Translations under genes and position numbers: made by a program | Shown here: one piece after another, positions 38,340-52,424 of the stretch | Position numbering within the stretch: the stretch's first letter is position 1 | Layout: every line of letters starts with the position of its first letter | The notes under the pieces: generated by a model | Seen by the model: the letters and a program-made list of their open reading frames with translations, nothing else | What the model was told of the DNA's origin: nothing | Databases searched by the model: none | Source of the DNA: Mesorhizobium sp. 65-26 | GTDB taxonomy: Bacteria > Pseudomonadota > Alphaproteobacteria > Rhizobiales > Rhizobiaceae | Direction: 5' to 3' | Assembly (NCBI GenBank): GCA_001899205.1 | Contig: MKVL01000013.1 | Span: 145,150-209,149, forward strand | DNA: 64,000 nucleotides

Positions 38340-39473
38340 TCACACGGTCGCGGCCCCGCCCTCGGCAACCTTGCGGGCGCTGTTATCGTGCAGTGGCGCC
38401 AGTCCGGCATGGCGGGTGAAATCCACATCGGACAGCGCCGTAACGCCGTGCCGTGGCAGTTCCGACAGCAATTTCGTGACGCGCTGGTGGGATTGCTCGA
38501 GCACTGTTTCCGCGACGCTGCCATCGCGGATGCCGGCGATGATGTTGTCGATAATGCGCAGGATGAGGCCGGTGTCGGCCCAATAGGCGCACATGCAAAG
38601 CAGGTCGCAGCCGGCATTGGCCAGCTTGATCGACGTCTCCGGCTGGTCGAGCATGGACGAAATCGCCTTCATGCCGAGGTCGTCCGAAACGACGACCCCA
38701 CCAAAACCCAGTTCGTTGCGCAATATGTCCTGCAGGATCGTTCTCGACATCGTCGCCGGCGTGCCGGGATCGATTTGCGGAAAGACGATATGGGCGGTCA
38801 TGACCATGCGCGCCTCGCCATTGGCAAGCTCGCGGAACGGCGCCAGCTCGCGCTGGCGAAACGTCTTGGCGTCGACATCCACGACCGGCAGGCCGTAATG
38901 GGAATCGACGCTCGTGTCGCCGTGTCCAGGAAAATGCTTGAGGCAGCCCATCACGCCTTCGGCCTGCATGGCATGCAGGAACGGCCGCGCGGCCTCCGTC
39001 ACCTCCTGGGGCGTGGCGCCGAAGGAACGGCGGCCGATCACCGGATTGTCCGGATTGGAATTGACGTCCAGAACCGGCGCAAAATTGACGTTGAAGCCAA
39101 GCGATGCCAACTCCCGGCCCATGGCGTGGCCGACATCCGCCGCGTTTTCGCGCCAGCGCCGGGCATAGGCGAAAGGCGTTATCGGCGCCGGCGGGCGCAG
39201 CACCCCGCCGCCTTCATGGTCGATGCTGAAGATCACTTCGTCGCGGCCGATATGCTCGCGAATGTCGGCGACGAGTTGCCGGTGCGTGCCGAGCCATTCC
39301 TCGTAAGGCACGCCGGCCTGGAAATTGGCGCGGAAGAAGACGACCCCGGCAGGCCGCAAAAGAGAAAGCAGCCGCTTGTCATGGTCGCCCAGCACATGGC
39401 CTGGCTGCAAGCCGATCAGAAAGCGATGTCCGAGCGAAGCGGCGCCAGCGCCAAGGTCAAAGGGCAGATCCAT
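38340..39473 (-). CDS. nagZ: Glycoside hydrolase family 3 beta-N-acetylhexosaminidase (NagZ type)
   Basis: A 377-residue single-domain GH3 enzyme, without signal peptide, expected to release N-acetylglucosamine from beta-glycosides such as muropeptides. The NagZ catalytic loop is intact, KHFPGHGDTSVDSHYGLP at 179-196, with the Asp190/His192 general acid/base dyad, and the nucleophile Asp264 in VVVSDDLGMKAI. One oddity: the usual DQEGGR block reads DHEGGG (85-90), so the canonical Arg is replaced by Gly. ATG at 39473 has GAGG 6 bases upstream and lies inside the end of the amidase gene, suggesting translational coupling. It is last in a minus-strand operon with amidase, RidA, aldolase, propeller and cupin genes. 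This argues for a catabolic rather than a recycling role. Confidence 0.87.
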   Translation of the reverse strand: MDLPFDLGAGAASLGHRFLIGLQPGHVLGDHDKRLLSLLRPAGVVFFRANFQAGVPYEEWLGTHRQLVADIREHIGRDEVIFSIDHEGGGVLRPPAPITPFAYARRWRENAADVGHAMGRELASLGFNVNFAPVLDVNSNPDNPVIGRRSFGATPQEVTEAARPFLHAMQAEGVMGCLKHFPGHGDTSVDSHYGLPVVDVDAKTFRQRELAPFRELANGEARMVMTAHIVFPQIDPGTPATMSRTILQDILRNELGFGGVVVSDDLGMKAISSMLDQPETSIKLANAGCDLLCMCAYWADTGLILRIIDNIIAGIRDGSVAETVLEQSHQRVTKLLSELPRHGVTALSDVDFTRHAGLAPLHDNSARKVAEGGAATV

Positions 39474-40992
39474 GCATAGCCTCATTCTCGCCGGCGCTTC
39501 CCGTGGCACCGGCTGCCGGGAGATTGTGGCAGATTCGGTATGTGCTTGCCCACGGGCGAAGTTGTTCGAATGCCGCGCTGGCGGCGAGGACGTCGGCGTC
39601 GGCCCTGCCGCGGCCGATAAGCTGCAAGCCCACCGGCAGCCCGTCGGGCGAGAGGCCGGCGGGCACCGACGCGGCCGGGTGTCCGGTCAGGTTGAACAAG
39701 AACGTCATACACCAGCCGATTAGCGGATCGGCGGGGCGCCCGGCCACGCTGGAGGGACCGACGGTGTTGCCATCGACGGCGTTGGCGACAGGCATCGCCG
39801 CGACCGTCGGACAGGCGAGAAGGTCGTAGCGCTCGAACAGCTCCTGGAATGTCGCGAAGACCTCGGAGCGCATTGTCTGGTCCTCCAGATGCTGCAGGAT
39901 CGTCATTGATCTGCAGCATTCCAGCCATTCGCGAAACTGCAACGGCAGGTCCTCAGGGTGGTCGCGTAGCAGGTCATGGCCTTCGGCCTGGAGCAGCTTC
40001 AGCGTCAGCAGGCTGTTGGGCACGATCAACCTGCACCACAGATCGGAAAGCTCCCGCAGCGTGTAACGCAGGTCGAGATCGACCTGCTCCACGATTGCGC
40101 CCGCCTCCTCGAAGGCCCTGACAGCATCGGCGACGCGCTCCGCGATGATCGGGTCGACGCCATGAATGCCGAGGTTCGGGCTATAGGCGATGCGCATGCC
40201 GCGGATCGAGCGCCGTGTGGCGGGCATGAAGTCGCCGTGCGAGGGATAGCTCAGCGGATCGGCGGGGTCTTCTCCGGCAAGCGCGCCAAGGATGTAGGCC
40301 GTGTCGGCGACGCTGCGCGTCAGCGAGCCTTCGAAGATGAAGGGGTTGATGCCCGAGAACCTGTTGGCCCCCGCATGCAGCGGGAGCCGCCCGAAGGATT
40401 GCTTGAAGCCGTAGACGCCGCACCATGCCGCGGGAATGCGGATCGAGCCGCCGCCGTCGCCGCCCTCGGCGAAAGGCAGCAGCCCGGCAGCAACCGCGGC
40501 GGCCGCGCCGCCCGATGAGCCGCCGGAATTCAGCGCCAGGTTGAACGGATTGCGCGTCGGGCCGAACAGGAAATTGTCGCATGTGCCCCGGAACCCGAAG
40601 CTGGGGCTGTTGGTCTTGCCCACGGCGATCGCGCCCGCGCGGTCGGCGCGTTGCGGGGAGAGCGAATAGGCGCCGCTGACATAGTCCTTCAAGGCCGGGA
40701 CGCCGCCGAACGTATTGCGCCAGCCCGGCTTGAAGTCGAAACAGTCCTTCAGCGCATAGGGGATACCGTGAAGCGGGCCGATCTTGTCGCCCGCCATCAG
40801 CGCGCGCTCGGCCGCGCGTGCAGTGTCGAGCGCTTCCTCGAAGGCGAAGACCACAAGGGCGTTCAAGGCGTCGTTGCGGTCTTCGATCCCCTTGATGATG
40901 TCCATGGTGAGTTCGACGGGCGACAGTTCCTTCGCGGCGATCATGCGCGCGAGTTCAACGACACCTTTCGAGCCGAGTTCGTCCAACAGCAT
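39457..40992 (-). CDS. Amidase, amidase-signature family
   Basis: A 511-residue serine hydrolase of the amidase signature family, cleaving amides to acid plus ammonia or amine. The Ser-cisSer-Lys triad region is visible: the Lys in HGIPYALKDCFD and the glycine/serine-rich stretch NSGGSSGGAAAAVAAGLLPF, with GGDGGGSIRIPAAWCGVYGFK following. ATG at 40992 has GGAGG 7 bases upstream; the longer frame adds 9 residues. Its substrate is not evident; the operon context suggests an amide or N-acyl bond in the compound handled by the island. Its 3' end overlaps nagZ by 17 bases. Confidence 0.9.
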   Translation of the reverse strand: MLLDELGSKGVVELARMIAAKELSPVELTMDIIKGIEDRNDALNALVVFAFEEALDTARAAERALMAGDKIGPLHGIPYALKDCFDFKPGWRNTFGGVPALKDYVSGAYSLSPQRADRAGAIAVGKTNSPSFGFRGTCDNFLFGPTRNPFNLALNSGGSSGGAAAAVAAGLLPFAEGGDGGGSIRIPAAWCGVYGFKQSFGRLPLHAGANRFSGINPFIFEGSLTRSVADTAYILGALAGEDPADPLSYPSHGDFMPATRRSIRGMRIAYSPNLGIHGVDPIIAERVADAVRAFEEAGAIVEQVDLDLRYTLRELSDLWCRLIVPNSLLTLKLLQAEGHDLLRDHPEDLPLQFREWLECCRSMTILQHLEDQTMRSEVFATFQELFERYDLLACPTVAAMPVANAVDGNTVGPSSVAGRPADPLIGWCMTFLFNLTGHPAASVPAGLSPDGLPVGLQLIGRGRADADVLAASAAFEQLRPWASTYRICHNLPAAGATGSAGENEAMHGSAL

Positions 40993-41015
40993 CAGAACAC
41001 CTCCGGCGCCAGCGC

Positions 41016-41366
41016 TCAATCGCGCGCTGCGATGATGCCGATCTCGACCAGATTGGGCGTGCGCGCCAACAGCGCCTCGACCGTCGCGCGCGCCGGCGTG
41101 CTGTCAGGCGTGACCCAGGCATCCCACACTTCGTTCATCTCCTCGAAGCGGCGGATATCGCTCAGCCAGATCGTCGCGGACAGGATCTTCGATTTGTCGG
41201 TCCCTGCCTCCGCCAGCAGCGCATCGATCTTGGCAAGAATCTGCCGCGTCTGTTCGGGCACCGAGGGCACCGGGTCGTTCGCGGTCTGGCCCGCCAGGTA
41301 GACCGTGTCGTTGTGGATCACGATCTGGCTCATTCGAGGGCCCGTGCGCAGGCGTGTGATCGGCAT
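41016..41366 (-). CDS. RidA/YjgF-family protein
   Basis: A 116-residue member of the Rid family, which hydrolyses reactive enamine/imine intermediates or acts on related adducts. It has VYLAGQTANDP, EQTRQILAKIDALLAEAGTD and PARATVEALLARTPNLVEIG; the Arg in PARATVE is the conserved carboxylate-binding residue of Rid proteins. ATG at 41366 has AAGGAG upstream. It lies between an aldolase (6 bases away) and amidase. Catabolic operons that make 2-imino acids often carry such a gene, so an imine or aminoacrylate-like intermediate is possible here. Confidence 0.88.
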   Translation of the reverse strand: MPITRLRTGPRMSQIVIHNDTVYLAGQTANDPVPSVPEQTRQILAKIDALLAEAGTDKSKILSATIWLSDIRRFEEMNEVWDAWVTPDSTPARATVEALLARTPNLVEIGIIAARD

Positions 41367-41372
41367 GTTCTT

Positions 41373-42062
41373 CTAGCTCCTTGCTGACAGCTGCCGGCGG
41401 AACGAGGCCGTCCCGGCGGCAAGAAAATTGTTGGCGTGCTCGTAGAGGTAGGAAAAACCGGCCGCGACGAATTCGGTGGCCGTTTCCTGGACCACGAGAG
41501 TGCCCGGAATCCGGCCCGCCGCCCTGATCCTCGCGCCGAGCGACTTGACCATCGCCTTGACGTCCCGGCTGTGCATCTGCCCCGGCAGCCCCATCGACTG
41601 CGACAGGTCATTCGGCCCGACGAAGAAGACGTCGATCCCCTCGACGGCCAGGATGGCGTCGAGCCGCTCCACCGCCTGCAGGGATTCGATCATGGCGATG
41701 ACCACCTTGTCGCCGTGGTCCCTCGGGCGCGCGTAGCGCACCGTCTCGACCAGTCGCGTGGCCATGGCCTCGTCGTCGATATGCGGGACCATGACGCCGT
41801 CGCCGCCGGCGTCGAGATAGCGGGTGACGAGCCACGGCGCATCGCATTCGGGGCGCACCACCGTGGGCACGCCGGCGACGCGCGCGGCGCGGCACATGTC
41901 CGAGACGCGCTCTATGCCGGCCATGCCGTGCTCACAGTCGATGAAGATGCCGTCGACGCCGAGCTTGGCGACGAACTCCGTCAGGGACGGCGAGGGATGA
42001 TCGGGATTGACGACCAGGACGGTCTCATTGCGCAGCAGTTTCTGCTTCAGGGGATTGGCCAT
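41373..42062 (-). CDS. HpcH/HpaI-family class II aldolase
   Basis: A 229-residue metal-dependent pyruvate aldolase of the HpcH/HpaI/GarL type, which cleaves 2-oxo-3-deoxy (or 4-hydroxy-2-oxo) acids to pyruvate and an aldehyde. Visible are GIFIDCEHGMAGIERV, VRPECDAPW, YLDAGGDGVMVPHID, and the metal and catalytic regions ending VFFVGPNDLSQSMGLPGQ. ATG at 42062 is supported by homology (MANPLKQKLL); the open frame extends upstream without similarity. The natural substrate here is unknown. It is downstream of a BNR propeller and cupin gene. Confidence 0.9.
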   Translation of the reverse strand: MANPLKQKLLRNETVLVVNPDHPSPSLTEFVAKLGVDGIFIDCEHGMAGIERVSDMCRAARVAGVPTVVRPECDAPWLVTRYLDAGGDGVMVPHIDDEAMATRLVETVRYARPRDHGDKVVIAMIESLQAVERLDAILAVEGIDVFFVGPNDLSQSMGLPGQMHSRDVKAMVKSLGARIRAAGRIPGTLVVQETATEFVAAGFSYLYEHANNFLAAGTASFRRQLSARS

Positions 42063-42096
42063 GGCCTTTGATCCGTGTTTGCGAGGGAATTCGTGA

Positions 42097-43119
42097 TCAG
42101 CCGACGGCCAGCGCGAAAACGTGGCCCGCTCCCGCCGGAAGTTTGCCCATGCGCCAGCTTGCGCCGGCATCGGCCGAGGCGAAGACGTGGCCGTACTTGG
42201 TTGCGCAGGCGATTCCGGCCGGCGCGCGCGGATCGATCGCCAGGGCGAAGACCGTGGTCTTGAGCGGGCAGGGCAGCGACACGGGGCGCCAGGAGCCGCC
42301 GCCATCGCCTGAGGTGATCAGCGCGCCGACATCGCCGTCGAAATCGTTGCCGACGCCCATGTAGATGCGGTCGGGGTCGTCCGCCGCCCGCGCTATGGCG
42401 CGGCAATAGGTGCCGCGCGGCCGCAGCATCGGGATGTCGAGCGTGCGCCAGCGCCGGCCCTCGTCCTCACTTTGGAAGGCGCCGACGCGGGTGGCGACTG
42501 TGAGCAGGCTGTCCTTGCCGCTCACCGAGACGGCGTGCAGGTCGACGCTGTCCTCGTTGACATAGACGCCTTCGGTCACGCAGCCCCAGGTCTCGCCGTC
42601 ATCCTCGCTGCGCAGCAGGCCGCCGATCTCTATGCTGGCGTAGATCGTCCGCGGCCGCCGCGGATCGATGGCGATGCCGGTGACCCGTTTGGGCATTTCC
42701 GGCCCTTCGGTGACCGCCGGAAAGCGAGTGTCGAAAGACAAGGCCTGCCATGTCTGGCCGTCGTCGCGGCTGCGCAGCATGGCGGCTGGTTCCAGGCCGG
42801 CCAGCAGGGTATCCGGCTCGCTCGGATGGTTGAAGAGCGACCATACGGCGATCCCCGGGTCCGGCGCCGGCAGTTGACGCCAGCTCTCGCCATGATCTTC
42901 GCTGCGAAAGACGCCGCGCTGCGTGCCCACCGTCACCCGGCCGGTGCGGCCGGCATCCGTGACGATGGCGCGGACCTCGGGCTGCGGGTGAATGCGGTCG
43001 CCGATCGGCTCCCAGGGCCCTTCGACCGTGGCCGACCGATAGAGGCCGTGGCTGATGAAGCGGCCGGCATCGCTGTCGCCGGCAAGGCCGGCATAGAGGA
43101 AGCGTTTTTCCATCGTCAT
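42097..43119 (-). CDS. BNR/sialidase-like beta-propeller protein
   Basis: A 340-residue protein made of about six to seven BNR-type repeats. Asp-box-like units are seen at regular spacing (SEDHGESW, SRDDGQTW, SEDDGETW, SEDEGRRW, SGDGGGSW, SADAGASW). This predicts a sialidase-like or VPS10/WD-type propeller. No signal peptide is visible, so it appears cytoplasmic, and the sialidase FRIP and Arg-triad residues are not clear. A hydrolase or lyase active site therefore cannot be claimed. Start is ATG at 43119 or, two codons later, 43113. It lies in the operon between the cupin and aldolase genes and may bind or process a carbohydrate. Confidence 0.8.
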   Translation of the reverse strand: MTMEKRFLYAGLAGDSDAGRFISHGLYRSATVEGPWEPIGDRIHPQPEVRAIVTDAGRTGRVTVGTQRGVFRSEDHGESWRQLPAPDPGIAVWSLFNHPSEPDTLLAGLEPAAMLRSRDDGQTWQALSFDTRFPAVTEGPEMPKRVTGIAIDPRRPRTIYASIEIGGLLRSEDDGETWGCVTEGVYVNEDSVDLHAVSVSGKDSLLTVATRVGAFQSEDEGRRWRTLDIPMLRPRGTYCRAIARAADDPDRIYMGVGNDFDGDVGALITSGDGGGSWRPVSLPCPLKTTVFALAIDPRAPAGIACATKYGHVFASADAGASWRMGKLPAGAGHVFALAVG

Positions 43120-43132
43120 GCTCCGCTTGCCG

Positions 43133-43516
43133 TCATTCGGCCGAGTAGTCGATGGTCGGGGCGCCAGGCACCGCCACGGCGAAGGCCAGGCAGCGGATCG
43201 AGGCGTTGCCGCTGACCGGGCGCAGGCTGTGGACTGCTTCCGGTGGGATCTTCACCAGGTCTCCCTGGCGGATCTCGCGGGTTTCCTCTTCGATGGTCAT
43301 CAAGCCCCGGCCGGAAAGCACATAGTAGAACTCGAAAGTGGGATGGCTGTGCGGATGGACCTCGCCGCCACCGAGCACCTCGAACTCGCTGACCAGCTCC
43401 AGATGACCGCCCAGCGTCTCTGCTCGCATCTCGCGCGGCTTGAACAGCCACCACACCGGCACGGTGCCCTGATGCTCCGGGCTCGCGGCCACCTGTTCGA
43501 TCGATCTTACATCCAT
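43133..43516 (-). CDS. Cupin-domain protein
   Basis: A 127-residue single-domain cupin. Motif 1 reads HPHSHPTFEFYYVLSGRG with His/His/Glu metal ligands, and motif 2 reads GDLVKIPPEAVHSL with the last His. Cupins of this size may be isomerases, dioxygenases or simple sensors; none can be chosen here. First gene of the minus-strand arm of the 38-51 kb island and divergent from the ABC transporter. Confidence 0.87.
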   Translation of the reverse strand: MDVRSIEQVAASPEHQGTVPVWWLFKPREMRAETLGGHLELVSEFEVLGGGEVHPHSHPTFEFYYVLSGRGLMTIEEETREIRQGDLVKIPPEAVHSLRPVSGNASIRCLAFAVAVPGAPTIDYSAE

Positions 43517-43630
43517 GTCGGGGCTCCCATCCGTGCGCTCGAACCGGCGCTGCGGCTCGCGCTTTCATCGCCCTGGCCGCTCTACGGGGACCATGTCTAG
43601 CGACGATCCGCCGCCGCCCAAATCGGCTGA

Positions 43631-43662
43631 ATTATCAATAATTTTCTCGATGATCGGATCGA
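43631..43662. promoter_or_regulatory. Candidate operators in the divergent cupin/transporter promoter region
   Basis: ATTATCAATAAT (43631-43642) is a 12-base dyad with 5-base arms, the size and form of GntR/FadR-type operators. TCGATGATCGGATCGA (43647-43662) is a second dyad, TCGAT/ATCGA. Both lie about 90 bases upstream of the transporter start, in the only AT-rich stretch between the divergent arms. The linked GH3-GntR protein is the obvious candidate ligand-responsive binder; that is inference. Confidence 0.4.
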
Positions 43663-43730
43663 TAATCCCTCTGTTGCGAGGGGCGGCGGATGCGTCAGAT
43701 TTGGGCGCATCCAAATGGGAGAATGAAAAA

Positions 43731-44786
43731 ATGATTGGTGCGGGAACGAACATATTCGGCTGTGGCGTGCTGGTGCTCGGCTTGCTGGGGCCGGGCGCGG
43801 CATTCGCCCAGGAAGTGACCATCGCGACGTCCGGCGGCGTGGTGCAGGAGGCGGGCGCCAAGTATCTCTGGAACCCGGCCGCCAAGTCGCTCGGCCTGAC
43901 GGTCCGGGAGGAAACTTTCGACGACGGCTACCAGGCACTGCGCCTGCAGAAGGATGCCGGCGCCGTCACCTACGACATCGTCCAGGTGCCGACCTTCCAG
44001 GCCGAGATCGGCTTCAAGGAGGGCCTGTTCGGGCCGCTCGACTATTCAGTCATCGACGCCAGCGAATTTCCCAAGGCCGCCGCAGGCCCCGCCTGCATCG
44101 GCTTCCTCGCCTCCTCCTGGGTGCTGGCCTGGAACACCAAGGTCTACAAGGACAATCCGCCCAAGAGCTGGGCCGATTTCTGGGACGTGAAGAAATTCCC
44201 CGGACGTCGCGCTATGCACAACGATTCCGAAGCGCAGCTCGAGATGGCTTTGATGGCCGATGGCGTGGCGCCGAAGGATGTCTATTCGGTGCTGTCCTCG
44301 CCCGAAGGGTTGAAGCGCGCCATCGACAAGCTTGCCGAATTGAAGCCCAATATCGCGGTCTGGTGGTCATCCGGCTCGCAGAGCCAGCAGATCATGAAGG
44401 ACAACGAGGTCGACATGGCCGTGATGTGGAACGGCCGCTCCGAAGGTCTCAAGGCCGGCGGCGCGCCGGTGGACTACACCTTCAACGAAGGCATTCTGAG
44501 CCAGGATTGCTGGGCGGTTCCGGCCGATGCCCCGCACAAGGCGGCGGCGATGAAGCTGCTCAACGAGATGTCGAAGCCGGAGCCGCAGGCAAACTTCTCC
44601 GTCATGGTGAAGTACGGCCCGCTCAACATGAAGGCCTACGCGACCGGTCTGATTTCGGACGCGACGGCGGCCAAGTTCCCCAGCTTCCCGGCCAACGCCG
44701 AAAAGATGGTGGTGCAGAGCGGTTCCTGGTGGGCTGAAAACACCGCCAAGGCGGACGCCGCCTTCGACGACATGATGAACAACTGA
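43731..44786 (+). CDS. ABC transporter substrate-binding protein, spermidine/putrescine type
   Basis: A 351-residue periplasmic receptor. The signal peptide of about 26 residues (MIGAGTNIFGCGVLVLGLL, cut near AFA) leads into QEVTIATSGGVVQEAGAKYL. Other SBP_bac_8/PotD-like blocks are YDIVQVP, SSWVLAWNTKVY, PKSWADFWDVKKFPGRRA and DNEVDMAVMWNGR. ATG at 43731 is preferred because it starts the signal peptide directly; GGGAG lies about 10 bases upstream. It is followed by ATPase and two permeases. Receptors of this family also bind opines, phosphonates, thiamine and sugars, so the ligand is unknown. Confidence 0.87.
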   Translation: MIGAGTNIFGCGVLVLGLLGPGAAFAQEVTIATSGGVVQEAGAKYLWNPAAKSLGLTVREETFDDGYQALRLQKDAGAVTYDIVQVPTFQAEIGFKEGLFGPLDYSVIDASEFPKAAAGPACIGFLASSWVLAWNTKVYKDNPPKSWADFWDVKKFPGRRAMHNDSEAQLEMALMADGVAPKDVYSVLSSPEGLKRAIDKLAELKPNIAVWWSSGSQSQQIMKDNEVDMAVMWNGRSEGLKAGGAPVDYTFNEGILSQDCWAVPADAPHKAAAMKLLNEMSKPEPQANFSVMVKYGPLNMKAYATGLISDATAAKFPSFPANAEKMVVQSGSWWAENTAKADAAFDDMMNN

Positions 44787-44806: not shown

Positions 44807-45880
44807 ATGGCAGCGGTTACGGGCACGCCCTTGCTCGAGATCACGGATTTGAGCAAGCAGTACCACGGGTTCACGGCCTTGCGGGCCGTGAGCCTGACGG
44901 TCCGCGATGGCGAGTTCCTCACATTGCTCGGCCCTTCCGGGTCGGGCAAGTCGACCCTGCTGATGGCGATCGCCGGCTTCGTGCAGCCGACCGGCGGTTC
45001 GATCCTGCTGGCCGGCCGCGACATCTCCGCGCTGCCGGCGAACAAACGCGACCTGGGCGTCGTGTTCCAGAACTACGCCTTGTTCCCGCATATGAGCGTG
45101 CTGGCCAATGTGATGTTCCCCATGCGTGTCCGCCGTGTTGCTCGCTCCGAAGCGCGGCGGCAGGCGCTCGACGCGCTCGACCGGGTCGGTCTTGCCGGGT
45201 TCGAGGATCGCAACCCGGCCAATCTGTCCGGCGGCCAGCGCCAGCGTGTGGCGCTGGCGCGCGCCGTCGTGTGCAAGCCCCGGCTCATGCTCATGGACGA
45301 ACCGCTGTCGGCCCTGGACAAGAACCTGCGCGAACGCATGCAGGTCGAGATCCGTGGCCTGCACGAGCGGCTGGGCCTCACCACCATCTACGTCACCCAC
45401 GACCAGCGCGAGGCGATGGCGATGTCCGACCGCATCGCCGTGATGGAGCGCGGCCGCATCGTTCAGGCCGAGACGCCGCAGGCGATCTACAGGGCACCCA
45501 ACAGCCGTTTCACCGCCACCTTCATCGGCCATGCGAACCTGCTGCGACTGGACGCGCTGGAGCCGCGCGGGGCAGGGGCGGAGGCCATGGCGACGGAACG
45601 CGGCGCGGCCGACGAACTCGCCGTGCTGCGCGCCGAGCACATAAGCCTGGACCCGGACGCCAACGGTGGCGATGGTTTCATCTTCGCGGCGGAAGTGGTG
45701 CGTACGCTGTTCCAGGGCGATGGCTGGTTGGTCCTGCTTTCGACAACGGACGGCGCCAGCGTGGAGGCCAGGATAAGCGTGGCCGAGGAAGCAAGGCTTG
45801 GCGGCATCGCCGCCGGCTCCACGGTGCGCGCCTTCGTGCCCTGCGGGCAGCTTTCCTTCGTGCCGGCGGCATCGCAATGA
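44807..45880 (+). CDS. ABC transporter ATP-binding protein, PotA type
   Basis: A 357-residue ABC ATPase with Walker A GPSGSGKST, signature LSGGQRQR, Walker B LMLMDEPLSALDKNLRE, the H-loop YVTHDQREAM, and a C-terminal TOBE-type regulatory region (about 285-350). The stop overlaps the next start (ATGA at 45877-45880). It energises the two permeases that follow. Confidence 0.92.
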   Translation: MAAVTGTPLLEITDLSKQYHGFTALRAVSLTVRDGEFLTLLGPSGSGKSTLLMAIAGFVQPTGGSILLAGRDISALPANKRDLGVVFQNYALFPHMSVLANVMFPMRVRRVARSEARRQALDALDRVGLAGFEDRNPANLSGGQRQRVALARAVVCKPRLMLMDEPLSALDKNLRERMQVEIRGLHERLGLTTIYVTHDQREAMAMSDRIAVMERGRIVQAETPQAIYRAPNSRFTATFIGHANLLRLDALEPRGAGAEAMATERGAADELAVLRAEHISLDPDANGGDGFIFAAEVVRTLFQGDGWLVLLSTTDGASVEARISVAEEARLGGIAAGSTVRAFVPCGQLSFVPAASQ

Positions 45881-46779
45881 GCCCGATATCGCCCAGCCTC
45901 GGCGCCGCGGCCGGTCACGCGGACGGACGTCCCGCGAAAATGCGCGCGTTCGAAGGCATGCTGGCGGTGCCGGCGCTCCTGCTGGTGATCGCCGCCCTCG
46001 TCGTCCCGACGGGTTGGTTCTTCGCCCAGTCGTTCGTCGGCGCCGACGGGCACCTGTCGCTGGAGAACTACAGCCGCATCGTGGAGTCGCCGGCCTACTA
46101 CCGCACATTCCTGACCACCTTCCAGCTCAGCGCGGTCACGGTGCTGGTCTGCGTGCTGGTCGGCACGCCGCTCGCCTTCGTCATGGCAACCGCGAGAGGA
46201 CGGCCGGCGGCGCTGCTGTTCCTGGCGATCCTGCTGCCCTTCTGGACGGCGCTTCTGGTGCGCACCTACACCTGGCTGGTGGTGCTGCAGCGCTTCGGCC
46301 TGGTCAATTCCTTCCTGATGTGGACCGGCCTCACGAGCGAACCCTTGCCGCTCATCAACAATTTCGCCGGCACCGTCGTCGGCATGGTCCACATCATGCT
46401 GCCCGTCTTCGTGCTGCCGACCTACGCTGCCATGAAGCAGATGGACGTCAACGTGGTGCGGGCCGCGCTTAGCCTCGGCGCCAGCCGCACGCGCACCTTC
46501 TTCGGCGTCATCCTTCCGCTCTCGGCGTCCGGCATACTGGCCGGGACCGTGCTCGTCTTCGTCACGACGCTGGGCTTCTTCGTCACCCCGGCGATCCTCG
46601 GCGGCGGCAACGTCACCGTCGTGTCGATGCGCATCGAAAAGAACATCTCCTCCTTCTCCAACTGGGGAGCGGCCAGTTCGCTGGGCGTGGTGTTGCTGGC
46701 CATGGTCGCCGCCGCGCTTGCCGTCGGATACTGGGCGGTCGCCCGGTCGCGCCGTTCGACGGGGGCAGCCAATGGATAA
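45877..46779 (+). CDS. ABC transporter permease, PotB type
   Basis: A 300-residue inner-membrane permease with six spans. It has LPFWTALLVRTYTWLVVLQ, the EAA loop VRAALSLGASRTRTFFGVILP and TLGFFVTPAILGGG, typical of the spermidine/putrescine branch. ATG at 45877 overlaps the ATPase stop. Its end overlaps the second permease by 8 bases. Confidence 0.9.
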   Translation: MSPISPSLGAAAGHADGRPAKMRAFEGMLAVPALLLVIAALVVPTGWFFAQSFVGADGHLSLENYSRIVESPAYYRTFLTTFQLSAVTVLVCVLVGTPLAFVMATARGRPAALLFLAILLPFWTALLVRTYTWLVVLQRFGLVNSFLMWTGLTSEPLPLINNFAGTVVGMVHIMLPVFVLPTYAAMKQMDVNVVRAALSLGASRTRTFFGVILPLSASGILAGTVLVFVTTLGFFVTPAILGGGNVTVVSMRIEKNISSFSNWGAASSLGVVLLAMVAAALAVGYWAVARSRRSTGAANG

Positions 46780-47614
46780 TCTCCTGCAACTGGGGCGCGC
46801 CGGCCGTCTGGCCTTCGGCGTCTTCGCGGGCGTGGTTGCCGTGTTCCTGCTTATTCCGACGCTCCTTGTCATCCCGATGTCGCTGTCGGGGTCGGAACTC
46901 CTGGAGTTCCCCCCGAGCAGCTGGTCGCTGCGCTGGTGGCACGAATTCTGGCAATCCAACGTCTGGATGTCGGCCACGCGCACCAGCCTGCTGCTCGCGC
47001 TTTCGACATCCTTCTGCGCCATGCCGATCGCGCTTCTGGCAGCCTATGCCGCGCGCTCTCTCAGCGGCCGCCGCTCGCTGGCGATCAGCGGCATCGTGCT
47101 GTTACCGGTGGCTGTGCCGCCGGTGCTGATCGGCATCGGCCTGTTCTTCGCCTTTGCCAAGCTGCGGCTCAACGGAACATTCCCCGGTCTCCTTATCGGC
47201 CACACGCTGATGGCCGCGCCGGTCGCCTTCGTCATCCTGCGCGCCGCGCTCGCCACCTTCGACACCGACCAGCTCCGCGTCGCGCGCAGCCTCGGCGCCA
47301 ACGGCCCGCAATCCTTCTTCATGGTGCTGGTGCCGCAGATAAAGGGCCCGATCCTGACCGCCCTGCTGTTGTCGTTCCTGACGTCGCTGGACGAGGTCAT
47401 CATTTCGATGTTCGTCGGCAGCGGCCCCAACACGACGCTGACCAAGGTGATGTTCCTGTCGCTTCGCGACCGGATCGACCCGCAGACAGCGGTGATCTCG
47501 ACGGTGTGGACGCTGCTGGTGTTCGTGATCGTGATCGCGATCTACCGGCGCGAGCTGACCTCCGGTTCGCGCGATTCCGCCCCTCCCGTACCATCCAACG
47601 ACACCGGCCGCTGA
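46772..47614 (+). CDS. ABC transporter permease, PotC type
   Basis: A 280-residue partner permease with six spans. It carries WWHEFWQSNVWMSATRTSLLLAL, the EAA loop LRVARSLGANGPQSFFMVLVP and SFLTSLDEVIISMFVGSG, all typical of PotC-type subunits. It completes the four-gene transporter. Confidence 0.9.
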   Translation: MDNLLQLGRAGRLAFGVFAGVVAVFLLIPTLLVIPMSLSGSELLEFPPSSWSLRWWHEFWQSNVWMSATRTSLLLALSTSFCAMPIALLAAYAARSLSGRRSLAISGIVLLPVAVPPVLIGIGLFFAFAKLRLNGTFPGLLIGHTLMAAPVAFVILRAALATFDTDQLRVARSLGANGPQSFFMVLVPQIKGPILTALLLSFLTSLDEVIISMFVGSGPNTTLTKVMFLSLRDRIDPQTAVISTVWTLLVFVIVIAIYRRELTSGSRDSAPPVPSNDTGR

Positions 47615-47647: not shown

Positions 47648-48775
47648 ATGGACAAAGTAGGCATCGGCATCCTCGGCGCTGGCAGCATCGCCCACTATCA
47701 TGCGCCGGCGGTCGGCAAGACGGCCAATGCGCGCCTGGTCGCCATTTGCGATCCCGACCGCAAGCGGGCCGGCCAGGTGGCCGAGCAGTACGGCGCCGAG
47801 AAGATCTACACCTCGCTGGACGAGATGCTGCGCGATCCGGCCGTGGAAGGCGTGGTGGTGTGCACGCCGAACTTCATGCACCGTGAACATGCCGAGGTTT
47901 GCGCGAAGGCAGGCCGGGGCGTGCTGTGCGAGAAGCCGATCTCGATCACGCTCGATGAGGCCCTGTCGATGCAGAAGGCGGCCGACGAAGCCGGCGTGCC
48001 TTTGCGCACCGGCTTCAACCAGCGCTTCCTCAACCAGGTCAAGCTGGCCAAATTCGCCATCGAGCAAGGCGTGATCGGCGAGATCCATGCCTTCCGCAGC
48101 GTCTTTTCCGGCAAGTGGAACAACTATTTCGACGAGACCAACTTCCGCTACCTGCCCGAGCAGTCCGGCGGCACCACCATCAACGACAATCTGGTCCACC
48201 GCTACGACATGATCCGGCATCTGCTGGACGACGATTTCGAGAGCGTGGTGGCCGATCTCCACCACTCCGTGATCCCGCCGGTGGTGGATGACAACGTGCA
48301 TATGATCGTTCGCACCAGGAAGGGCGCGCGCGGCACTTTCGCGGCCGACCGCTTCTCCTCCGTGATCGCCGATTCGACCGACATCTACGGCACCAAGGGT
48401 TCGATCCATCTGGTCACCAACGCGGTTTCGCCTTTCCACGCGGTGCCGCTGGCGATCAACACGACGGTCGCGCCGGAGGAATTGCCGAAGCGCCTGACCG
48501 GGGCGGTCTATCCGTTCGCCAAGGCGCGCGCCAATCCGGCCTGGACCGGCTGGATGTCGTTCTGGCCGGAGTTCAACGACGCCTACGCAGAGCAGGTCTC
48601 CGAATTCGCCGATGCGCTGAGAGGCCGCCAGGCGACCCATGTCGGCGCCACCGGCATCGATGGCATCCGCAGCCAGGAGCTGATCCAGGCAGCCTACGAC
48701 TCGCAGATCGACAGCTGCTGGATATCGCTGCCGCTGACGCAGGGCACGCCTTATCGCATGCCGAGCTACAGCTGA
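47648..48775 (+). CDS. Gfo/Idh/MocA-family oxidoreductase
   Basis: A 375-residue NAD(P)-dependent dehydrogenase. The N-terminal Rossmann fold has ILGAGSIAHYHAPAV and the family motif CEKPIS, and the C-terminal domain starts about residue 125 with TGFNQRFLNQ and carries the catalytic His region NLVHRYDMIRHLL. Family members oxidise sugars, inositols, amino sugars and related polyols. It lies 33 bases after the transporter and 11 bases before an isomerase-like gene, so it is part of the same operon. It probably oxidises the imported compound; the exact substrate is unknown. Confidence 0.9.
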   Translation: MDKVGIGILGAGSIAHYHAPAVGKTANARLVAICDPDRKRAGQVAEQYGAEKIYTSLDEMLRDPAVEGVVVCTPNFMHREHAEVCAKAGRGVLCEKPISITLDEALSMQKAADEAGVPLRTGFNQRFLNQVKLAKFAIEQGVIGEIHAFRSVFSGKWNNYFDETNFRYLPEQSGGTTINDNLVHRYDMIRHLLDDDFESVVADLHHSVIPPVVDDNVHMIVRTRKGARGTFAADRFSSVIADSTDIYGTKGSIHLVTNAVSPFHAVPLAINTTVAPEELPKRLTGAVYPFAKARANPAWTGWMSFWPEFNDAYAEQVSEFADALRGRQATHVGATGIDGIRSQELIQAAYDSQIDSCWISLPLTQGTPYRMPSYS

Positions 48776-48786
48776 GGACGGCAAGG

Positions 48787-49614
48787 GTGTCGCGCGTCGC
48801 ATATTGTACCGGCCATCTCCACGACCAGCCGCTGGCGACGGTCGCCGAGATGGCGCGGCTGGCCGGCTACGAAGGCCTCGACATCAACGGCGACGGCTTC
48901 GAGAAGTCGCCGCCGCCGCATCTGACGCCGCGTCTGGATGCCCACCACCGCGAGCAGGCGAGGGCCGATCTGCGCGACATCGACAAAGCGGCGTCGGCGC
49001 TTGGGGCCAACGTTTACTTGGTCCCCGACGATGACAGGCGAGGCCAGGAGAACCTGGCCTACGCCATGGCCTCGATCGATCTGGCGGCGGAACTCGGCAT
49101 CCCCCTCGTCCACTGCTTCACGGGCCGGCAGGCACAATCGCTTTCGCGCGCCGAGGCGTTCAGCCGGCTGAGCGACGCACTCGCCCGGCTTTGCGATCAT
49201 GGCGCGGGGCGTGGCGTGAAGGTGGCGGTAGAGGGCTGCGTGCCGCATTTCATCCGCTCGACCGCCGATTATCTCGAGCTGATCGGCAACCTGCCTGGCG
49301 CGGACCTGCGTGTCTGCTTCGATCCATCGCACATCTTCCTGCACGGCGAATCCGAATTCGAGGCGGCCGAAAAGCTGATCGATCGCATCAGCATCGTGCA
49401 TGTGAAGGACGCCGCCGGTCGTTTCCCGGATTTTTCCTGCCCGCCCCTCGGCGCGGGCGAGATGGATTGGCCCGGCCTGCTGTCGCTGCTGCGCGGCCTC
49501 GGTTATGGCGGTCAACTGGCGGTGGAATACGAGGCGGACCAGTTCGGCTGGAAGCAGGATCGCATGGCGGCCATGCTCGATGCGCGGCGGTTCCTGCGCG
49601 ATCAGGGTTTTTAA
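48787..49614 (+). CDS. Sugar phosphate isomerase/epimerase-like TIM-barrel protein
   Basis: A 275-residue xylose-isomerase-like TIM barrel (AP_endonuc_2 family). The likely metal ligands fall in VAVEGCVPHF, VCFDPSHIFLHGE, IVHVKDAAGRF and LAVEYEAD, giving the usual Glu/Asp/His/Glu set. The start is GTG at 48787, with an AGGACGG-like stretch upstream. Members are sugar isomerases, epimerases, inosose dehydratases or hydroxypyruvate isomerases. Pairing with a Gfo/Idh/MocA dehydrogenase is common in inositol and sugar-acid pathways. Last gene of the plus arm, convergent with the GH3-GntR gene. Confidence 0.85.
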   Translation: MSRVAYCTGHLHDQPLATVAEMARLAGYEGLDINGDGFEKSPPPHLTPRLDAHHREQARADLRDIDKAASALGANVYLVPDDDRRGQENLAYAMASIDLAAELGIPLVHCFTGRQAQSLSRAEAFSRLSDALARLCDHGAGRGVKVAVEGCVPHFIRSTADYLELIGNLPGADLRVCFDPSHIFLHGESEFEAAEKLIDRISIVHVKDAAGRFPDFSCPPLGAGEMDWPGLLSLLRGLGYGGQLAVEYEADQFGWKQDRMAAMLDARRFLRDQGF

Positions 49615-49695: not shown

Positions 49696-51420
49696 TCAAT
49701 GCGGCCGCAGCGCCGCCTTGGGTTCCAGGCCGAGCACGCTTTCCCGGTAGAACTCAAACGCCATCGCGATGTGTTCCGCACACAGATGCGCAAGCAGGTT
49801 CGCATCTTCGCGGCGCACCGCCTCGATGATTGCTTCATGCTCATGGCAGGTGAGCGCGAGCCGCTCCACCGACCGCAGATTCTGGACATAGACGTTTCGC
49901 ACCAGCGCATCGCAGTTGCCGATGGCGGCGGAGAGGAACTCGTTTCCGGATCCCTCGCACAGCACCTGATGGAAGACGATGTCGGCGTGGAGGATCTGCT
50001 GCAGGTCACGTCGCTCGACGGCTTCGCAAAACTGGTTCTGCACCTCCTCGAGCCGGAAGAGCAGGGAAGGGGCGGGGCGCTGCAGGCGGTTCGCGGCCGC
50101 GACGTGGAGCGTGGTCTGCAGATCCTGCAGCTTGGCCAGTTCATCCTGGGTGAAGTGGCGGATGGTGGCGCCGCGATAGGCCTCGAAGCTGACGATGCCC
50201 TTGCGCGCCAGTTCCTGGAAGGCCGCGCGCGCGACATGCCGCTTGACGCCCATTCCATAGACCAGTTCGTCTTCCATCAGCCTTTGGCGCGGCAGGAGCC
50301 GCCCGAAAACGATGTCGCGTTCGATGCTGTCGACCACGCTGGCGACGACGCGACCGCTGCGCGTGTCCCCGGCGTTGTCGTTCGACCGGCCGGTGCGCAG
50401 CAGGATGTCGAGACGAGCGGTCGCCCGCTCCATGTCGATCGGCGCCGGCTCGTGCCGTGCTGCCTCGGCGCGTTCCAGCCGCAGCGCCGTATCCTCGCCG
50501 ACGCCTTCCAGGGCCGCGGCCACCGCCTGCATCTGGTCCATGTCGCCATTGCCATGCACGACGAGATCGCAACCCGCCTCCAGCGTCTCGCGAACGTGGC
50601 GGTCCAGTTCGTGGGCTGGCCCGAGCGTCGCGACGTCGTCGCTGATCAGCACGCCGCCGAAGCCTATGTTCGAGCGTATGATGCCTTCTATGACCGGCAC
50701 CGACGCGGTGGCGCGTATTTCGGGGTCGAGCTTGCGGTAGAGGACATGCGCGACCATGGCGCAAGGCATGTCGTGCAAGGCCCGGAAGGGGACGAAGTCG
50801 AAATTGTCCATCTCCTTGAGGGATGCGTCCACCACCAGCAACGGCTCGTTGCGGTCGACCGCGGCGCGGCCGTGGCCGACAATGTGCTTGATGACAGGCA
50901 GCACACCGCCGCAAAGCAGGCCTTCGCAGGCGGCGCGGCCGAGCAGCGAGACCGTCTCGGGCGTGTCGCCGAAAGCGCGCCCGCCGATGATTTTGTGGGC
51001 ATTCGGCGCGGGCAGGTCGAGCACCGGCGCGATGTTGACGGTGATGCCGAGCTGGCGCAGTTCCGCCGCCACCAGGCGGGCGTTGAGGTGGACGGCCTCG
51101 GCCGCGCGCCTGGGGTCGGTGCGGGCGACGTCGAGGAACTGCACGGCGGAAGGCACCGCCCGCCAATGCGGTGGCGCCAGCCGGCTGATGCGTCCGCCTT
51201 CCTGGTCGATGAAGATGTTGACGTGCTTCCTGCCGACCGCTTCCTTCAACTCGCGGACCAGCTCGCCGAGTTGCTTCGGGTCACGGCAGTTGCGGCTGTG
51301 GAGGATGAAGCCGTAGGGATTGGTCTCGCGGAAGAAGCGGAATTCCGAGGCGCTGAGCGTGTGGCTCGCGCAACCGAATATCGCCGCCGATGGTCGCCGC
51401 GAAGCGTGCAGGCCCGTCAT
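49696..51420 (-). CDS. GH3 (NagZ-like) domain fused to a GntR/FCD transcriptional regulator
   Basis: A 574-residue protein with an unusual architecture. Residues 1 to about 325 are a NagZ-like GH3 barrel: IDQEGGRISRL (71-81), NIAPVLDLPAPN (129-140), a catalytic-loop equivalent KHIVGHGRAAVDRNEP (178-193), and GGVLISDDVATLG with nucleophile-equivalent Asp261. The Asp of the Asp-His dyad remains (Asp189), but the His is Asn191, so hydrolysis is doubtful. After a linker (325-354), residues 355-420 are a GntR winged helix (LMEDELVYGMGVKRHVARAA) and 428-560 an FCD effector domain with possible metal ligands Asp480, His484, His528 and His550. The frame is open throughout. ATG at 51420 is preferred over TTG 51435. 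Inference: the GH3 part binds an amino-sugar glycoside and controls the island through DNA binding. Confidence 0.88.
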   Translation of the reverse strand: MTGLHASRRPSAAIFGCASHTLSASEFRFFRETNPYGFILHSRNCRDPKQLGELVRELKEAVGRKHVNIFIDQEGGRISRLAPPHWRAVPSAVQFLDVARTDPRRAAEAVHLNARLVAAELRQLGITVNIAPVLDLPAPNAHKIIGGRAFGDTPETVSLLGRAACEGLLCGGVLPVIKHIVGHGRAAVDRNEPLLVVDASLKEMDNFDFVPFRALHDMPCAMVAHVLYRKLDPEIRATASVPVIEGIIRSNIGFGGVLISDDVATLGPAHELDRHVRETLEAGCDLVVHGNGDMDQMQAVAAALEGVGEDTALRLERAEAARHEPAPIDMERATARLDILLRTGRSNDNAGDTRSGRVVASVVDSIERDIVFGRLLPRQRLMEDELVYGMGVKRHVARAAFQELARKGIVSFEAYRGATIRHFTQDELAKLQDLQTTLHVAAANRLQRPAPSLLFRLEEVQNQFCEAVERRDLQQILHADIVFHQVLCEGSGNEFLSAAIGNCDALVRNVYVQNLRSVERLALTCHEHEAIIEAVRREDANLLAHLCAEHIAMAFEFYRESVLGLEPKAALRPH

Positions 51421-51646: not shown

Positions 51647-52424
51647 TCACAGCTGGCTTTCCGTCATCGGCCTCTCGCCGCGACGCAAGGTCAGCACTTC
51701 GACCCCGGACCTTGTGACGGCGACCGTGTGCTCGAACTGGGCGGAGAGCTTGCGGTCATTGGTTACCACCGTCCATCCGTCCCGCTCGGTCGAAACCTTG
51801 CTGGTGCCCTGGTTGAGCATCGGCTCGATGGTGAAGATCATGCCTTCGCGCAGTTTCATGCCGGTTCCCGGTCGGCCGAAATTGAGCACTTGCGGTTCCT
51901 CGTGCATCTCGCGGCCGATGCCGTGTCCGCAATACTCCCGCACGATCGAATAGCCGTTCCTCTTGGCATGCCGTTCGATCGCGAAGCCGATGTCTCCCAG
52001 GTGCGCCGGGCCGGACCTGGCCTATGCCTTTCCACATCGCCTCCTGGGCGACACGCACCAGCCGCCTCGCGGCCGGCGAGGCATTGCCGACCAGGTAGGT
52101 CTTGCTCGAATCGGCGATGAAGCCGTTCTTCTCCAGCGTGATGTCGAAGTTGACGATGTCGCCGTCGCGGATGATGTCGGCCGGGCTGGGCACGCCGTGG
52201 CAGACGACATGGTTGATCGAACAGTTCAGGACATATTTGAAGCCGTACTGGCCCTTGCTGGCGGGGCGCGCGGCGAGATCCACCGTGATGAAACGGTCGA
52301 CCAGGTCGTTCACCTCCAGCGTCGACATGCCGGCGAGTTCCTGCCCGTCCAGCATTTCGAAGACGGACGCCAGCATCCGTCCCGACAGGCGCATGAGCGC
52401 CAGTTCGTCCGGGGTCTTTACCAT
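51647..52424 (-). pseudogene. map: Type I methionine aminopeptidase, frameshifted
   Basis: Two frames together make one methionine aminopeptidase of about 258 residues. Frame 1 (from ATG 52424) gives HVVCHGVPS and NFDITLEKNGFIADSSKTYLVG with the two metal Asp residues. Near 52010 the frame changes: after GQVRPGA the expected HLGDIGFAIERHAK is found in another frame, continuing YCGHGIGREMHEEP, IFTIEPML and AQFEHTVAV with the remaining His and two Glu ligands. The break fits loss of two bases in a GCGC run. All metal ligands survive across the two frames, so this is either a recent inactivation or a sequencing error. It is coupled to the ParD-like gene upstream. Probably a second, non-housekeeping copy. 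Confidence 0.85.

What the first reader, a model, noticed from the sequence alone, without database searches (positions are those of the whole stretch)
49696..51420. GH3 (NagZ-like) domain fused to a GntR/FCD regulator
One uninterrupted frame of 574 codons joins a hexosaminidase-like barrel to a GntR winged helix and FCD domain. The barrel keeps the family's IDQEGGR block, the KH pair and the nucleophile-equivalent Asp261, but the catalytic loop reads VDRNEP, so the His of the Asp-His acid/base dyad is Asn191. This fits an enzyme converted into a ligand-binding sensor on a transcription factor, which I do not know as a described regulator class. If it still cleaves slowly, it could be a sensor that destroys its signal.
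Basis: partly seen in the sequence, partly recalled or inferred. Interest (0 to 1): 0.88.

Follow-up and report, generated by a model that had tools for sequence, protein, structure and literature searches.

The report
Retired enzyme fused to gene regulator
A soil-type bacterium carries a gene switch whose extra front part is a sugar-cutting enzyme that has lost a key catalytic residue but kept its sugar-binding residues, and it probably senses a sugar compound and controls the neighbouring uptake and breakdown genes.

Summary
ORF 49696-51420 (-) encodes 574 residues: NagZ-like GH3 barrel + GntR winged helix + FCD, all above Pfam cut-offs. It is no assembly artefact: three genomes of one other genus (Aminobacter) carry the same fusion (52-53% identity) in the same gene neighbourhood. 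No other full-length match was listed in the family, order, class and phylum samples. The dyad His is replaced in 4 of 4 fusions (Asn or Ser) and present in 44 of 44 other NagZ-like loci fetched, while 58 of 75 NagZ-invariant columns, nucleophile and sugar-contact residues included, are kept. The barrel is under strong purifying selection (dN/dS 0 to 0.04). New here: a paired motif, TTATCRATAA with a second copy 12 bp on, lies in front of the transporter and catabolic operons in all four genomes; exact matches were listed nowhere else in them. I conclude: a one-component regulator with a retired glycosidase as probable effector domain. Ligand binding, DNA binding and loss of catalysis are untested. 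The principle has precedents (MocR, RsgI6); the architecture was not found described: a new variant of a known kind.

The parts
49696..51420 (-). GH3-GntR-FCD fusion gene, 574 codons
   Evidence: homologues L005, L049, L050
50506..51312 (-). NagZ-like GH3 barrel (residues 37-305)
   Evidence: PF00933 2.7e-39; NCBIfam NagZ model 179.4 bits, below its 207-bit cut-off; Foldseek to solved NagZ, TMt about 0.80-0.86
50848..50850 (-). codon of Asn191 in place of the dyad His
50164..50340 (-). GntR winged helix (residues 361-419)
   Evidence: PF00392
49765..50085 (-). FCD domain (residues 446-552); probable metal ligands D480, H484, H528, H550
   Evidence: PF07729; identical in both rows of A1 and in the four fusions of A3; same spacing as N137/H141/H192/H214 of Atu1419
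43632..43665 (.). candidate operator: three 12-bp-spaced copies TTATCAATAA / TTCTCGATGA / GGATCGATAA (only the first is a full match to TTATCRATAA)
43731..44786 (+). solute-binding protein; nearest solved relatives 4i1d and MotA
44807..45880 (+). ABC transporter ATPase
45877..46779 (+). ABC permease 1 (PotB/PotH type)
   Evidence: below the equivalog cut-offs
46772..47614 (+). ABC permease 2
   Evidence: named by position and by me, no family call
47648..48775 (+). Gfo/Idh/MocA dehydrogenase
48787..49614 (+). xylose-isomerase-like TIM barrel
43133..43516 (-). cupin, first gene of the divergent operon
42097..43119 (-). BNR/Asp-box protein
41373..42230 (-). HpcH/HpaI aldolase (start chosen by me)
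39457..41019 (-). amidase
   Evidence: about 32% identical to the Aminobacter cluster amidases
38340..39509 (-). second GH3 with an intact D-S-H dyad in the same cluster; no counterpart besides the fusion itself in the Aminobacter stretches read

Best explanation
It is a cytosolic one-component transcription regulator of the GntR/FCD family that has captured a NagZ barrel as an extra N-terminal effector domain. The barrel kept the residues that hold GlcNAc in NagZ and the nucleophile Asp, but lost the His of the acid/base dyad, so it should hold a beta-GlcNAc-type glycoside (or a related amino-sugar compound brought in by the adjacent ABC transporter) rather than cleave it quickly. Without ligand the dimer sits on TTATCRATAA repeats in front of the transporter and catabolic operons and represses them; ligand in the barrel, possibly together with an effector in the metal site of the FCD domain, releases it. 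Shown by sequence: architecture, recurrence, His loss, kept residues, selection, synteny, motif and its genome-wide rarity. Inferred: ligand class, DNA binding by this protein, repression and induction, dimer state.
For: Domains above cut-off. Fusion in four genomes of two genera. Dyad His replaced in 4 of 4 fusions, present in 44 of 44 other NagZ-like loci fetched (these are the best-scoring hits of capped lists). Of 75 columns at least 97% invariant in 31 NagZ rows, 58 are kept in all four fusions (among them D72, R80, R148, K178, H179, D189, D261), 12 are changed in all four, 5 in some; the changed ones include the catalytic loop (P181, H191, P195) and the loop after the nucleophile (M265, A267, L268, G270). 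Fusion barrels form one clade, 100/100. Among the three Aminobacter genes dN/dS is 0, 0.036 and 0.040 for the barrel against 0.09, 0.11 and 0.13 for FCD; the first pair has 35 synonymous and 0 non-synonymous changes in the barrel. Cupin, BNR, HpcH, Gfo/Idh, TIM barrel, SBP, ATPase and both permeases accompany the fusion at 40-63% identity in all three. TTATCRATAA-N5-KCGATRA: exact at two places in each of G207, G771 and G772, both at this cluster, and at one in the window genome. Core within one mismatch upstream of 8 of 28 stand-alone relatives of the GntR/FCD part, 0 of 27 downstream, 0.97 expected from dinucleotide shuffles, 0-3 of 28 for six scrambled words.
Against: No binding or activity data. 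The three Aminobacter proteins are near-identical, so there are only two independent lineages. The motif pattern was drawn from the sites it was then counted with; with up to 3 mismatches it has 24-47 matches per strand per genome, more than its reversed control (3-7). 20 of 28 relatives lack the core. The loops around the active site have low model confidence (residues 75-82 below pLDDT 50; blocks 141-150 and 261-270 at 62 and 68; pTM 0.59). The cluster shows no clear peptidoglycan or chitin link and its SBP resembles opine and polyamine binders, so a GlcNAc ligand is not obvious. FCD keeps a probable metal site and may be the main sensor.
Confidence: 0.6

Rival explanations
1. The FCD domain is the only effector site, as in other GntR/FCD regulators; the barrel is a structural or oligomerisation module that happened to be fused.
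For: FCD metal-site residues D480, H484, H528, H550 are kept in the four fusions; stand-alone relatives without a barrel exist, the best at 41% identity and about 4.4 kb from a related transporter.
Against: The barrel is more constrained than FCD (dN/dS 0-0.04 against 0.09-0.13) and keeps the pocket residues, which a mere spacer would not need.
Confidence: 0.2
2. The barrel is still an enzyme: Glu192, invariant next to the lost His, or another group serves as acid/base, and the protein is a bifunctional enzyme-regulator that removes its own signal.
For: Nucleophile D261 and D189 kept; E192 present in 4 of 4 fusions while that column is variable in 31 NagZ rows, 1 of which has E.
Against: Two prolines of the catalytic loop and the loop after the nucleophile are changed; no assay; two lineages only.
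Confidence: 0.12
3. The TTATCRATAA sites belong to another FCD regulator such as BioR, not to the fusion.
For: BioR is reported to bind TTATMKATAA (PMC4494728, passages); the Aminobacter SBP site TTATCGATAA fits that consensus.
Against: The window genome has a GntR/FCD gene beside a BioY gene (Pfam) with TTATAGATAA in front of each, a different core; exact paired TTATCRATAA sites were listed only at this cluster; 8 of 28 relatives of the fusion's regulator part carry the core upstream.
Confidence: 0.1
4. Assembly or annotation artefact joining two genes.
For: None found.
Against: Same junction in four genomes, one of them on a 5.0 Mb contig.
Confidence: 0.01

Closest known systems
NagZ (GH3 beta-N-acetylglucosaminidase of cell-wall recycling)
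   Same: Barrel fold, IDQEGGR, KH, the D of the dyad, nucleophile; listed NagZ hits of the family are 40-49% identical; solved NagZ are among the top structural matches
   Different: Dyad His absent, loop prolines and post-nucleophile loop changed, fused to a DNA-binding module, 179.4 bits against the 207-bit NagZ cut-off
GntR/FCD regulators (FadR/VanR group, e.g. Atu1419, BioR, NanR)
   Same: Winged helix + FCD with Asn/Asp-His-His-His metal site; short palindromic site near the regulated promoters
   Different: Extra N-terminal glycosidase-derived domain of about 335 residues; candidate operator copies repeated every 12 bp
MocR-type GntR regulators (subfamily named in PMC4494728, passages; the aminotransferase fold is recalled)
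   Same: An enzyme fold used as effector domain on a GntR winged helix
   Different: MocR has an aminotransferase fold C-terminal to the helix; here a glycosidase fold lies N-terminal and FCD is kept as well
RsgI6 of Clostridium thermocellum (PMC4711584, passages)
   Same: A glycoside hydrolase domain (GH10) of very low activity that keeps carbohydrate binding and serves as sensor in gene regulation
   Different: Extracytoplasmic, on an anti-sigma factor; here presumably cytosolic, GH3, on a one-component DNA-binding regulator

Membership tests
GntR/FCD transcription regulators | GntR winged-helix domain above cut-off | tested here: met
   35.2 bits against 27
GntR/FCD transcription regulators | FCD domain above cut-off | tested here: met
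   64.2 bits against 24.3
GntR/FCD transcription regulators | metal site of one Asn/Asp and three His (metal-binding subgroup) | tested here: met
   D480, H484, H528, H550 by alignment; spacing as in Atu1419; metal itself not tested
GntR/FCD transcription regulators | palindromic site near regulated promoters | tested here: inconclusive
   sequence motif only; binding not tested; the common GntR form NyGT..ACNy was not found shared
GntR/FCD transcription regulators | dimer or tetramer that binds DNA | not testable with these tools
   needs purified protein
NagZ | Glyco_hydro_3 domain | tested here: met
   135.9 bits against 27
NagZ | Asp-His catalytic dyad | tested here: not met
   DRN/DKS in 4 of 4 fusions; D-x-H in 44 of 44 other NagZ-like loci
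NagZ | nucleophile Asp and GlcNAc-contact residues | tested here: met
   D261, D72, R80, R148, K178, H179; their roles are recalled
NagZ | score above the NCBIfam NagZ equivalog cut-off | tested here: not met
   179.4 against 207 bits
NagZ | beta-N-acetylglucosaminidase activity | not testable with these tools
   needs an assay
BioR regulon | site TTATMKATAA at biotin genes | tested here: not met
   window sites are not full matches to TTATMKATAA and the cluster has no biotin gene; a BioR-like gene beside BioY with TTATAGATAA sits elsewhere

The most novel reading that the evidence does not exclude
A two-input one-component regulator in which a NagZ-derived pocket, with its acid/base moved from His to Glu192 or turning over very slowly through a covalent glycosyl-enzyme, acts as a self-timing sensor: it is induced by a hexosaminide, clears it slowly, and integrates this with a metal-bound effector in FCD.
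Probability: 0.12. Interest if true: 0.9.

Novelty: new variant of a known kind. Interest (0 to 1): 0.74.

Why it matters
It would be a clear case of an enzyme of cell-wall recycling turned into the effector domain of a transcription factor, with the catalytic loss visible at one residue of an otherwise kept pocket. It offers a testable ligand class, an operator sequence and target operons, so enzyme-to-sensor evolution can be studied with simple assays, and it could serve as a scaffold for hexosaminide biosensors.

Tried and rejected
Rejected: assembly artefact (fusion in four genomes). Not favoured: origin from the GH3 enzyme of the same cluster (38340-39509); in the tree the fusion barrels group with NagZ of the same order and the cluster enzyme lies on a very long branch, whose place the program calls unsure. 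Tried: viral-contig scan with the linker/GntR part, 19 pattern matches, no relative. Tried: plasmid collection with the whole protein, 768 records match, 0 over at least 80% of the query. Tried: classical GntR palindrome search in the eight upstream regions; one perfect hit (A. ciceronei SBP region, 10 of 12 in G207), one in the A. anthyllidis cupin region, weak ones elsewhere, none shared with the window. Tried: promoter/terminator scan of 43500-43760, none found. Tried: paralogous transporter clusters of the own genome and genus (L071-L074): no fusion; the C-terminal query gave one hit, E 0.18. Tried: surroundings of four other C-terminal relatives (G067, G010, G148, G041): no SBP or permease match, though three have an ABC ATPase match. 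Redone: the upstream-motif test mis-oriented some loci and took a wrong ORF in some loci (8 of 29 upstream there); one search places each gene by tblastn and is the version used; L090 dropped there (no hit). A script could not open the locus files and was redone. VIA structural comparison was not available.

Limits of the taxonomic scan: drawn, partly overlapping samples of 394 family, 397 order, 10 genus-of-G207, 289 class and 398 phylum genomes, three or four candidates scored per genome in most. Searches admitted hundreds of NagZ matches and their match lists were cut, best first. The one genome-contig scan used two peptide patterns from the winged helix, so diverged fusions would be missed.

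Full report
The observation. The minus-strand ORF 49696-51420 is open for 574 codons and scores above Pfam cut-offs for Glyco_hydro_3 (residues 37-305), GntR (361-419) and FCD (446-552). It misses the NCBIfam NagZ cut-off (179.4 of 207 bits). In the alignment with solved P. aeruginosa NagZ the N191 column is the His of the DSH motif; I equate it with His174 by assuming a 20-residue tag. An H174A structure of that enzyme is in the PDB (title).

Not an artefact. They are 52-53% identical to the window protein. 3 of 10 genomes of that genus have it. It is rare: among the listed matches, only the window genome and G207 are full-length in 394 family genomes (list cut, best first); only the window genome in 397 order genomes (list cut, best first); only the window genome reaches E 1e-130 in 289 class genomes; the window genome and one other reach 1e-120 in 398 phylum genomes, and that other is a NagZ with DSH and no regulator domain. 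The scan of one genome per 84,980 species with two winged-helix peptides gave the two Aminobacter species only. No plasmid record of 72,556 covers 80% of it.

What happened to the barrel. All 44 other NagZ-like loci fetched (the best hits of capped lists) carry D-x-H; the four fusions carry DRN or DKS. Seven of these loci with long stop-to-stop frames were checked and have at most 18 residues after the barrel. I gave 33 of the 43 such loci then held to the tree; 31 were usable. The fusion barrels form one clade (100/100) that lies among NagZ of the same order (96/99 for the group without L038 and L040), so one capture of a NagZ is the simplest history; the distant cluster GH3 that roots the picture has a very long branch. 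Of 75 columns at least 97% invariant in those 31 rows, 58 are kept in all four fusions, 12 changed in all four, 5 in some. Kept: D72, R80, R148, K178, H179, D189, D261, which in NagZ hold GlcNAc or act in catalysis (roles recalled). Changed: F41, C130, P181, H191, P195, L204, T223, M265, A267, L268, G270, C290 (letters of NagZ, numbers of the window protein), several of them in the catalytic loop and the loop after the nucleophile. Glu192 is present in 4 of 4 fusions and 1 of 31 NagZ rows. Among the three Aminobacter genes the barrel has dN/dS 0 (35 synonymous, 0 non-synonymous changes), 0.040 and 0.036; the winged helix has no non-synonymous change in any pair; FCD has 0.09, 0.11 and 0.13. 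The barrel is therefore maintained, more strictly than the FCD domain.

Structure. AlphaFold2 with a 24-row alignment gives mean pLDDT 82.2 and pTM 0.59; residues 75-82 and 344-352 are below 50 and the blocks 141-150 and 261-270 are at 62 and 68, so pocket geometry and domain arrangement are not settled. Foldseek's 50 listed matches are GH3 enzymes, mostly NagZ, with TMt about 0.80-0.86 for most NagZ chains; no GntR/FCD chain is within those 50, so the fold of that half rests on Pfam and the model.

Neighbourhood. Cupin, BNR protein, HpcH aldolase, Gfo/Idh dehydrogenase, TIM barrel, SBP, ATPase and two permeases are conserved in all three Aminobacter clusters at 40-63% identity. There the fusion follows the transporter genes on the same strand; in the window it lies convergent to them. 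An amidase is present in both (about 32% identity). The window cluster also holds a GH3 with an intact DSH dyad (38340-39509); in the Aminobacter stretches read its only match is the fusion itself. The SBP is closest among solved structures to 4i1d and MotA. The real substrate is unknown; the Gfo/Idh scores include levoglucosan and UDP-GlcNAc dehydrogenases, all below cut-off.

Operator. Comparing upstream regions shows TTATCRATAA followed by a second copy 12 bp on, in front of both the SBP and the cupin operon in Aminobacter and in the divergent region of the window, where three copies follow at 12-bp spacing (43632-43641, 43644-43653, 43656-43665), about 65 bp before the SBP ATG. Exact matches to TTATCRATAA-N5-KCGATRA occur at two places in each of G207, G771 and G772, both at this cluster (list cut, exact matches first within each genome), and at one in the window genome. 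The pattern was drawn from these sites, so what counts is its rarity, not the match itself; with up to 3 mismatches it has 24-47 matches per strand per genome against 3-7 for the reversed control. In the stretch from 400 bases before to 20 after the start of 28 stand-alone GntR/FCD relatives, 8 have TTRTCRATAA within one mismatch; 0 of 27 downstream stretches do; 0.97 are expected from dinucleotide shuffles; six scrambled words give 1, 2, 3, 0, 2 and 2 of 28. One of the 29 relatives fetched was dropped (no tblastn hit). The three best-scoring relatives all have it; 20 of 28 do not. BioR, another GntR/FCD regulator, is reported to read TTATMKATAA (PMC4494728, passages). The window genome holds a GntR/FCD gene beside a BioY gene (Pfam) with TTATAGATAA in front of each, a different core; I call it BioR-like from this context. 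This argues that the cluster sites are read by a different protein, most simply the fusion.

Mechanism. FCD keeps D480, H484, H528, H550, with the spacing of the zinc site in Atu1419 (PMC7797058, passages). The molecule thus has two candidate effector sites. The best-supported model is a repressor released by a glycoside bound in the barrel, perhaps with an FCD effector; that the barrel senses is inferred from selection and kept residues, not shown.

What is known. Full-text searches for GntR with GH3, NagZ or Glyco_hydro_3 found no description of such a fusion: searches returned nothing, one paper each, seen as listings and unrelated (open-licence PMC only). The principle has precedents: MocR regulators (GntR with an enzyme fold; fold recalled) and RsgI6, a weakly active GH10 used as a sensor on an anti-sigma factor (PMC4711584, passages). 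NagZ enzymes are stated to use a conserved Asp-His dyad (PMC6572805, passages).

Noticed in passing
window 51647-52424 (-): Methionine-aminopeptidase-like gene appears split over two frames: a 222-aa ORF matching the first part of the model and a 98-aa ORF that by eye carries the C-terminal part. Pseudogene or sequence error; not examined further.
   Followed up: no
window 38340-39509 (-): A second NagZ-like GH3 with intact DSH dyad, overlapping the end of an amidase ORF, in the same cluster; it could be the enzyme whose substrate the fusion senses.
   Followed up: partly
L105 10843-11499 (-): Best-scoring stand-alone relative of the GntR/FCD part (41%), with ATATCGATAA 25 bp before its start and a related SBP-ABC operon about 4.4 kb away.
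   Followed up: partly
L106 11404-11425; L107 10802-10823: 22-bp inverted-repeat-like sites TTGTCAATAATATTATTGATAG and TTGTCAATAAAAATATTGATAA upstream of two further relatives, perhaps a subfamily operator type.
   Followed up: partly
L111 (G000:C10:84500-89500): GntR/FCD (BioR-like) gene next to a BioY gene with two TTATAGATAA boxes, in a genome where the bioB model finds nothing above cut-off: probably a biotin importer under BioR.
   Followed up: partly
G000:C10:350656-351687: A paralogous SBP-ABC cluster (SBP about 50% identical) in the same genome, without the fusion.
   Followed up: no
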